The translations under genes were made by a program, and so were the position numbers. Shown in pieces: positions 57,049 through 58,890 of a stretch of 64,000 nt of DNA. Origin of the DNA: an uncultured Ignavibacteriota bacterium (GTDB lineage: Bacteria > Bacteroidota > Ignavibacteria > UBA10030 > UBA8401); NCBI GenBank assembly GCA_903861125.1, contig CAIOTF010000015.1:62001-126000 (forward strand), written 5' to 3'. Position 1 is the first letter of the stretch. Every line of letters starts with the position of its first letter. The notes beneath the pieces were generated by a model. That model saw only the letters and a list, made by a program, of their open reading frames with translations. It was not told the origin of the DNA and made no database searches.

Positions 57049-57107
57049 TACTGTCTCCTGTGAAGTACTAACGCCCCGGAGCCGGAGCTCGCATCTTCAG
57101 TTGAATA

Positions 57108-57323: not shown

Positions 57324-57824
57324 TTATGAAAAAAGTTCTTGAACGGAAATTCCGCGTTCTGCTGCAACCATTCTTGCATCACGCATTGAGAGCAGCGCAC
57401 GCAGCGTTGCTTTCACAACGTTATGCGGATTTGCCGATCCCATCTGCTTTGTCAGAATATCTTTCACTCCAGCCATCTCCAGTACGGCACGCACACCTCC
57501 GCCGGCGATCAAGCCAGTTCCGGGCGCTGCAGGACGAAGCAATACTTTTCCTGCACCGAATTTTCCAAGGGCCTCGTGTGGAACAGTTCCATTGATAAGC
57601 GGAACTTTCACAACATTCTTTTTGGCATCATCAGTCCCTTTGGATATCGCGTCAGCAACTTCATTCGCCTTACCGAGTCCGATCCCTACGTATCCGTTCC
57701 CGTCGCCGACAACAACAATTGCATTAAAGCTGAAACGGCGTCCACCCTTCACCACTTTTGCTACGCGGTTGATGTGCACCAATTTGTCTTTCAGATCGAG
57801 ATCACTTGTTTTAATTCGAGCCAA
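57324..57824 (-). CDS. rpsE: 30S ribosomal protein S5
   Basis: A 166-residue S5 involved in decoding accuracy. The double-stranded-RNA-binding half [21 protein letters not shown] and the following [20 protein letters not shown] are well conserved, as is [26 protein letters not shown] tRNA-Gln gene lies directly upstream, which is unusual for this operon. Confidence 0.98.
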
Positions 57825-57862
57825 GGTAAATCCTCACAGTTATTTTTTTTCGTTAAATGTTG

Positions 57863-57933
57863 CTGTCGTGCCAGGATTCGAACCTAGATTAACGCCTCCA
57901 AAGGGCGCTGTCCTGCCATTGGACGACACGACA
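57863..57933 (-). tRNA. tRNA-Gln (anticodon TTG)
   Basis: Read on the minus strand it gives a full cloverleaf: acceptor TGTCGTG/CACGACA (7 bp, U1-A72 as in other tRNA-Gln), discriminator G73, D-arm GTCC/GGAC, anticodon stem GCGCC/GGCGT with loop CTTTGGA and anticodon TTG, and T-arm CTAGG/CCTGG with TTCGAAT. The length is 71 bases and no CCA is encoded (next bases are CAA). It lies inside the spc part of the ribosomal operon, between rplR and rpsE, in the direction of transcription. Confidence 0.95.
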
Positions 57934-57948
57934 ATTGGACAGCACGAC
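57918..57948 (-). repeat. Tandem partial copy of the tRNA-Gln 5' end
   Basis: On the plus strand ATTGGACGACACGAC (57918-57932, inside the tRNA) and ATTGGACAGCACGAC (57934-57948) are nearly identical 15-base units differing at two positions. The second unit sits just upstream of the tRNA 5' end and looks like a scar of duplication or insertion. Confidence 0.6.
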
Positions 57949-57955
57949 GAGCAGT

Positions 57956-58324
57956 TTAGAATTTCAATCCGCCTTCGCGAGCACCATCGGCAAACGCCTT
58001 CACGCGTCCATGATACAAATACCCGTTACGATCAAACACGACCGCGCTGACATTTTTTTCTATAGCTTTCTTTGCCAGAAGTTTCCCCACCAGCGTACTC
58101 TGCGCCACTTTTGTTTTTACACCGGCCACATCCTGTTTCACCTCTTTAGAATTCGTTGAAAGTGAAACGATTGTTTTTCCCGTTACGTCATCAATAATCT
58201 GTCCGTAAATTTCATTCAGACTGCGATAGACGGAAAAACGTGGGCGTTCCGTTGATCCAAAAATTTTCTTTTTGATCGTTTTTTTGATCCGAATGCGGCG
58301 TTTTGTAGTGTCTTTTTTAATCAT
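57956..58324 (-). CDS. rplR: 50S ribosomal protein L18
   Basis: A 122-residue L18, which binds 5S rRNA. Conserved parts include STERPRFSVYRSLNEIYGQIIDD and VSAVVFDRNGYLYHGRVKAFADGAREGGL at the end. It is followed, before rpsE, by the tRNA-Gln gene. Confidence 0.97.
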   Translation of the reverse strand: MIKKDTTKRRIRIKKTIKKKIFGSTERPRFSVYRSLNEIYGQIIDDVTGKTIVSLSTNSKEVKQDVAGVKTKVAQSTLVGKLLAKKAIEKNVSAVVFDRNGYLYHGRVKAFADGAREGGLKF

Positions 58325-58344
58325 AATCTCAATTCACAAATTTA

Positions 58345-58890
58345 TTATTTCGAACTTGCTGCTGTTTTACCGGCTTTACGACGGAGCACTTCACCTTCAT
58401 ATTTTACTCCTTTGCCTTTGTATGGTTCGGGGAGCTTGAACGACCGAATTTTTGCTGCAACAAGTCCGACAAGTTGTTTGTCGAAACCGGCTATAACAAT
58501 ACTTGTTGGTGTCGGCGTTTCGATCTTTATTGAATCAGGAGCACGGAAAATAATCGGATGTGAAAATCCAAGCGCAAGTGCAAGGTTCTTGCCTTTCATT
58601 TCCGCCTTGTAACCGACACCCACTAACTCCAATTTTTTGGCAAATCCTTCTGCAACACCCTTGATCATATTCGCAACATTGGCGCGGGACGTTCCGTGAA
58701 TAGCACGATTCGAACGCTCTTCTGTTTTTCTCGTGAGCGTCACTTCGCTTCCCTTAATGTCAATGCCGACATTCGGATGCAGCTGAGTTTTGAGTTCTCC
58801 GTTTTTTCCTTTTACGGTAACAATGCCGTTGTTCACTGCCACTGTTACACCGCTTGGAACTGTAATAAGTTTTTTACCTATACGTGACAC
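58345..58890 (-). CDS. rplF: 50S ribosomal protein L6
   Basis: A 181-residue L6 near the factor-binding centre. It opens MSRIGKKLITVPSGVTVAV and keeps ANMIKGVAEGFAKKLELVGVGYKAE and, near the end, EPYKGKGVKYEGEVLRRKAGKTA. Length and place are normal. Confidence 0.98.
   Translation of the reverse strand: MSRIGKKLITVPSGVTVAVNNGIVTVKGKNGELKTQLHPNVGIDIKGSEVTLTRKTEERSNRAIHGTSRANVANMIKGVAEGFAKKLELVGVGYKAEMKGKNLALALGFSHPIIFRAPDSIKIETPTPTSIVIAGFDKQLVGLVAAKIRSFKLPEPYKGKGVKYEGEVLRRKAGKTAASSK

What the first reader, a model, noticed from the sequence alone, without database searches (positions are those of the whole stretch)
57863..57948. tRNA-Gln embedded in the spc ribosomal operon, with a tandem copy of its 5' end
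A complete tRNA-Gln(TTG) lies between rplR and rpsE, in the direction of transcription, in a gap of only 131 bases. Ribosomal protein operons of this type rarely contain tRNA genes. Next to its 5' end is a 15-base near-copy (two differences) of the first part of the tRNA, 16 bases away. This looks like a scar of duplication or of an insertion event. The tRNA would have to be cut out of the ribosomal mRNA by RNase P and a 3' nuclease, linking glutamine tRNA supply to ribosome synthesis and cutting the mRNA between L18 and S5.
Basis: partly seen in the sequence, partly recalled or inferred. Interest (0 to 1): 0.62.

Follow-up and report, generated by a model that had tools for sequence, protein, structure and literature searches.

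The report
Conserved glutamine tRNA inside ribosomal operon
In this Ignavibacteria-type bacterium the only glutamine tRNA gene found that reads CAA codons sits inside a ribosomal-protein operon; this is not a recent accident but an old arrangement kept in at least ten related families, so the cell probably has to cut an essential tRNA out of ribosomal messenger RNA.

Summary
Observation confirmed. A complete tRNA-Gln(TTG) (57862-57933, minus strand; Rfam 60.5 bits) lies between rplR and rpsE, in the direction of the spc operon. A tandem near-copy of its first 16 bases abuts its 5' end. The genome's other tRNA-Gln reads CTG, so this is the only TTG gene found.

It is not an oddity of this genome. 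Of 143 genomes of the class with rpsE found, 61 have a tRNA-Gln directly upstream of rpsE. The split follows families exactly: all sampled genomes of 10 families have it (61/61), none of 14 others (0/82). All 30 loci fetched from elsewhere in the phylum lack it. An r-protein tree fits one gain and about three losses.

The near-copy is real and not chance, but it is a later tandem duplication found only in four species of the window's genus, not a scar of the tRNA's insertion. It could pair with the tRNA's 3' acceptor strand; evidence for a function is weak.

Best reading: a mixed mRNA/tRNA operon whose tRNA is released by RNase P and a 3' nuclease. Co-transcription and processing are inferred; leaders of 3-8 bases in several lineages leave no room for a promoter in the gap.

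The parts
57956..58324 (-). rplR (ribosomal protein L18), upstream neighbour
   Evidence: open frame of 122 aa; conserved synteny in 30 of 30 relatives
57934..57955 (-). 22-nt leader between the rplR stop and the tRNA
57934..57949 (-). tandem near-copy of tRNA bases 1-16 (CGTCGTGCTGTCCAAT)
   Evidence: shared by G000, G002, G004, G006 only
57862..57933 (-). tRNA-Gln(TTG) gene; CCA not encoded
   Evidence: only TTG gene found in the genome
57825..57861 (-). 37-nt trailer and rpsE leader with GTGAGGA before the TTG start
57324..57824 (-). rpsE (ribosomal protein S5), downstream neighbour
   Evidence: open frame of 166 aa

Best explanation
A mixed tRNA/mRNA operon. The single tRNA-Gln(UUG) is transcribed as part of the spc r-protein transcript. 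It folds within that transcript and is released by RNase P at its 5' end and by a 3' nuclease such as RNase Z; CCA is then added because the gene does not encode it. Cutting splits the message into a part ending after rplR and a part starting in the rpsE leader. The arrangement arose once in an ancestor of much of the class and is inherited vertically, with a few losses. The 16-nt near-copy is a later tandem duplication of the tRNA 5' end in one sub-clade. Shown: position, orientation, single TTG gene, conservation and its limits, lineage-specific duplication. Inferred: co-transcription, processing steps, any coupling of tRNA supply to ribosome synthesis.
For: Intact tRNA, same strand, in 30 of 30 fetched relatives and in 61 of 143 class genomes with complete family structure. 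Anticodon TTG kept in all slot genes read except one. Stems vary with pairing kept across 25 aligned genes, so selection maintains the tRNA. Leaders of 3-8 nt in several lineages leave no room for a promoter in the gap; no promoter-like site and no terminator on this strand in window 57700-58500. Tree: one gain and about three losses.
Against: No RNA data. A promoter inside rplR cannot be excluded, since promoter types of this group are not covered by the scan. The RNase Z family gave only sub-threshold matches in this genome. Deep nodes of the tree are weakly supported.
Confidence: 0.83

Rival explanations
1. One reading: a rare, recent insertion of a tRNA into the operon, with the near-copy as its duplication scar.
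For: The near-copy is real and directly abuts the tRNA. The tRNA body of the four-species clade is more like that of another genus of the family (93%) than that of two sister species (83%), so the tRNA itself may have been exchanged in this clade.
Against: The tRNA is in the same slot in ten families. Sister species carry slot and tRNA without the copy, with leaders CTGCT and ATGCT that match the bases before the copy.
Confidence: 0.04
2. The tRNA has its own promoter inside rplR and is independent of the operon; its place there is a historical accident kept because moving it is hard.
For: Many tRNAs have their own promoters (general knowledge). Families without the slot carry the TTG tRNA elsewhere without harm.
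Against: No promoter-like site found; any promoter would lie in coding sequence, and there is no terminator after the tRNA, so it would still read into rpsE.
Confidence: 0.13
3. In the four-species clade the duplicated 5' end is a working switch: it pairs with the tRNA 3' acceptor strand and delays cloverleaf folding and RNase P cleavage unless ribosomes finishing rplR cover it.
For: The predicted best fold pairs the leader with the 3' acceptor strand in all four species (probability 0.98-0.99), 4.8 to 9.5 kcal/mol better than the best fold that keeps the cloverleaf. The 11-nt core GCTCGTCGTGC is invariant; 18 of 22 leader columns are invariant where 26% of fourfold sites are (p 9e-8).
Against: Several precursors without the copy also fold away from the cloverleaf in this model, which ignores tertiary contacts. 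Other spacers of the operon are nearly as conserved (12/16, 13/23, 16/23 ungapped columns). Sister species do without it.
Confidence: 0.05

Closest known systems
E. coli secG-leuU polycistron (tRNA-Leu on a transcript with a protein gene)
   Same: tRNA on a transcript with a protein gene, released by RNase P (Mohanty and Kushner 2008, cited as reference 63 in PMC3985628)
   Different: There the tRNA follows one protein gene; here it lies in the middle of the spc r-protein operon and essential genes follow it
E. coli thrU-tyrU-glyT-thrT-tufB operon (from memory)
   Same: tRNAs transcribed together with a translation-apparatus gene
   Different: There the tRNAs lead the operon; here a single tRNA interrupts it between two r-protein genes
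Ordinary spc operon of Bacteroidia and relatives
   Same: Same gene order around rplF-rplR-rpsE
   Different: No tRNA; rplR-rpsE spacer usually 3-36 nt in the Bacteroidia-type loci read

Membership tests
tRNA-Gln(UUG), functional gene | Full cloverleaf with intact stems, T-loop TTCGAAT and UUG anticodon | tested here: met
   60.5 bits against a gathering score of 29
tRNA-Gln(UUG), functional gene | Maintained by selection (stems vary with pairing kept, anticodon constant) | tested here: met
   alignment of 25 genes. One exception, L104, anticodon GTG
tRNA-Gln(UUG), functional gene | Charged with glutamine and used in decoding | not testable with these tools
   needs RNA or protein work
Mixed tRNA/mRNA operon | tRNA on the same strand within an uninterrupted gene series, no terminator | tested here: met
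Mixed tRNA/mRNA operon | Common transcript | not testable with these tools
   inferred from leaders of 3-8 nt in several lineages
Mixed tRNA/mRNA operon | Release by RNase P and a 3' nuclease | tested here: inconclusive
   RNase Z family TIGR02651: only sub-threshold matches, best 43 bits in a 311-aa frame; cleavage itself not testable
Insertion scar / target-site duplication | Duplication present wherever the inserted gene is present, or at least in the first carriers | tested here: not met
   slot in 10 families, copy only in four species of one genus

The most novel reading that the evidence does not exclude
In the four-species clade the duplicated tRNA 5' end acts as a switch: it competes for the tRNA 3' acceptor strand, so that release of the only CAA-reading tRNA depends on ribosomes finishing rplR, a feedback between L18 translation and glutamine-tRNA supply.
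Probability: 0.05. Interest if true: 0.65.

Novelty: new member of a known kind. Interest (0 to 1): 0.33.

Why it matters
What looks like an essential single-copy tRNA has stayed in the core of a highly conserved bacterial operon across at least ten families, so r-protein mRNA and a tRNA probably come from one transcript. It gives a natural case for asking whether tRNA supply is tied to ribosome synthesis, and how an r-protein message tolerates being cut in its middle. I found no report of it in the open-access papers searched. It also serves as a rare-genomic-change marker within Ignavibacteria.

Tried and rejected
Insertion scar: rejected by the spread of the tRNA and by sister species without the copy. 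A general cap hairpin in the leader that would protect the cut upstream mRNA: clear hairpins in some lineages (L045, L062, L069, L299), but over 62 leaders the signal is weak (mean z -0.27; 8 with p<=0.05 against about 3 expected; Mann-Whitney against trailers p 0.03 with non-independent sequences), so not claimed. Conservation of the near-copy as proof of function: strong against fourfold sites, not clearly so against other spacers of the operon. Plasmid search with the tRNA: none. Laying the whole genome for scripts was not available. A short R1-like match in G003 (same genus, 79% complete) was not a tRNA; G007 (82% complete) gave no match, so the slot is untested in these two. Literature searches for a tRNA between rplR and rpsE gave nothing relevant.

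Full report
What is there. ARAGORN finds one tRNA in the window, tRNA-Gln(ttg), 57862-57933 minus strand; Rfam agrees at 60.5 bits, full length. It lies between rplR (57956-58324) and rpsE (57324-57824), all on the minus strand. The gap of 131 bases is made of a 22-nt leader, the 72-nt tRNA and a 37-nt trailer. The tRNA ends in discriminator G followed by CAA, so CCA is not encoded. Its first 16 bases are repeated in tandem directly upstream (CGTCGTGCTGTCCAAT against TGTCGTGTCGTCCAAT). The scan of 57700-58500 found no sigma-70-like promoter, and no terminator on this strand.

The rest of the genome. The window lies in a 4.19-Mb assembly of 54 contigs, estimated 100% complete. Of 38 tRNAs listed, two are tRNA-Gln: this one (TTG) and one with CTG on another contig. 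A covariance model made from 25 slot tRNAs (R1) shows only the slot gene at E<=1e-13 and one further match at E<=1e-12, presumably the CTG gene. The window's gene is therefore very likely the only dedicated reader of CAA codons.

Relatives. A search of 60 relatives gave 30 loci, and all 30 hold the order rplF-rplR-tRNA-rpsE-rpmD-rplO, as far as the contigs reach, with the tRNA intact. Named genomes with the slot are Ignavibacteria, Ignavibacteriales and 'Bacteroidetes/Bacteroidota' MAGs; the Bacteroidia, Cytophagia and Rhodothermia loci lack it. A draw of 149 genomes of the class was searched with an S5 alignment and with R1. Joining coordinates: S5 found in 143; a tRNA-Gln 39-153 bases upstream of the S5 match on the same strand in 61. 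The split by family is complete: f1, f2, f3, f5, f7, f14, f16, f18, f59 and f60 all positive (61/61); f6, f8-f13, f15, f19, f57, f58 and f61-f63 all negative (0/82). S5 was also located in 37 of 40 chosen genomes elsewhere in the phylum; the 30 loci fetched from them have no tRNA near rpsE.

Evolution. A tree of L6, L18, S5, L30 and L15 from 43 loci places negative families f6, f10 and f58/f61 among positive ones; the nodes around f1 and f6 are well supported (98-100), deeper ones are weak. Parsimony needs four changes, which fit one gain and three losses. In families that lack the slot gene, tRNA-Gln(TTG) lies elsewhere and scores about 65-73 bits with R1, against 87-103 for nearly all slot genes; R1 was built from slot genes, so this contrast is partly by construction.

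The near-copy. It occurs in four species of the window's genus (G000, G002, G004, G006) and not in two others of the genus (G001, G005), whose leaders are ATGCT and CTGCT; the window's leader has CTGCT before the copy. So a 16-nt tandem duplication was added to an existing short leader. The match is not chance (9 of 200,000 shuffles; only this clade among 63 leaders). The four species have an identical tRNA that is more like that of genus g4 (93%) than that of the two sister species (83%), so the tRNA body may have been exchanged in this clade.

Does the copy do anything? RNA folding pairs it with the tRNA 3' acceptor strand in all four species. The same method also misfolds several precursors that lack the copy, so it is a poor judge. 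The leader is invariant at 18 of 22 positions where only 26% of 383 fourfold sites are (p 9e-8), but three other short spacers of the operon are invariant at 57-75% of ungapped columns. Leader columns 3 and 15, two of the four variable ones, are T/T in one species pair and G/C in the other, and face each other in a small leader hairpin. This is a lead, not a demonstration.

Mechanism. The most likely working is release of the tRNA from the spc transcript by RNase P and a 3' nuclease, followed by CCA addition. Direct evidence stops at the DNA. Leaders of 3-8 nt in several lineages leave no room for a promoter in the gap, so transcription must start in or before rplR. A known parallel is the E. 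coli secG-leuU polycistron, processed by RNase P (title of reference 63 in PMC3985628). Depletion of RNase P and RNase Z in Bacillus subtilis alters mRNAs of ribosome assembly factors (PMC10100781), which shows that tRNA maturation and ribosome production can be linked, though not by this route.

Verdict. Observation confirmed; interpretation partly supported. It remains an operon architecture for which I found no report: a new member of the known kind 'tRNA inside a protein operon'.

Noticed in passing
window 57049-57107 (minus strand), rpmD-rplO spacer: A conserved hairpin element GCGA-GCTCCG-GCTC-CGGGGC-GTTAGT before rplO: invariant over about 44 nt in four species at 26% fourfold-site invariance, kept in several genera of the family, no Rfam match up to E=1, normally one copy per genome. 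Candidate cis-regulatory RNA of the operon.
   Followed up: partly
L104 2880-2951 (= G060 C46:24847-24918, record JAUQWO010000076.1): The slot tRNA has anticodon GTG (His) through one base change in a tRNA-Gln body; no TTG-Gln gene was found among that genome's 45 tRNAs and a normal tRNA-His exists. Sequencing error or a real anticodon shift.
   Followed up: partly
L299 and L300, rpmD-rplO interval: In the family f16 and f18 representatives about 1.4 kb lies between rpmD and rplO; by eye it holds a long open frame with a signal-like start inside the spc operon.
   Followed up: no
L300, L328, L330, L332, L334 (family f18), leader before the tRNA: A shared motif AGCGGCCCTAACTCCA in the rplR-tRNA leader of this family.
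   Followed up: no
slot tRNA genes: Two tRNA body types (GTCCAATGG with AATC, GTCTAATGG with other variable loops) are patchily spread over genera of families f1 and f5, which suggests exchange of the tRNA body within the fixed slot.
   Followed up: no
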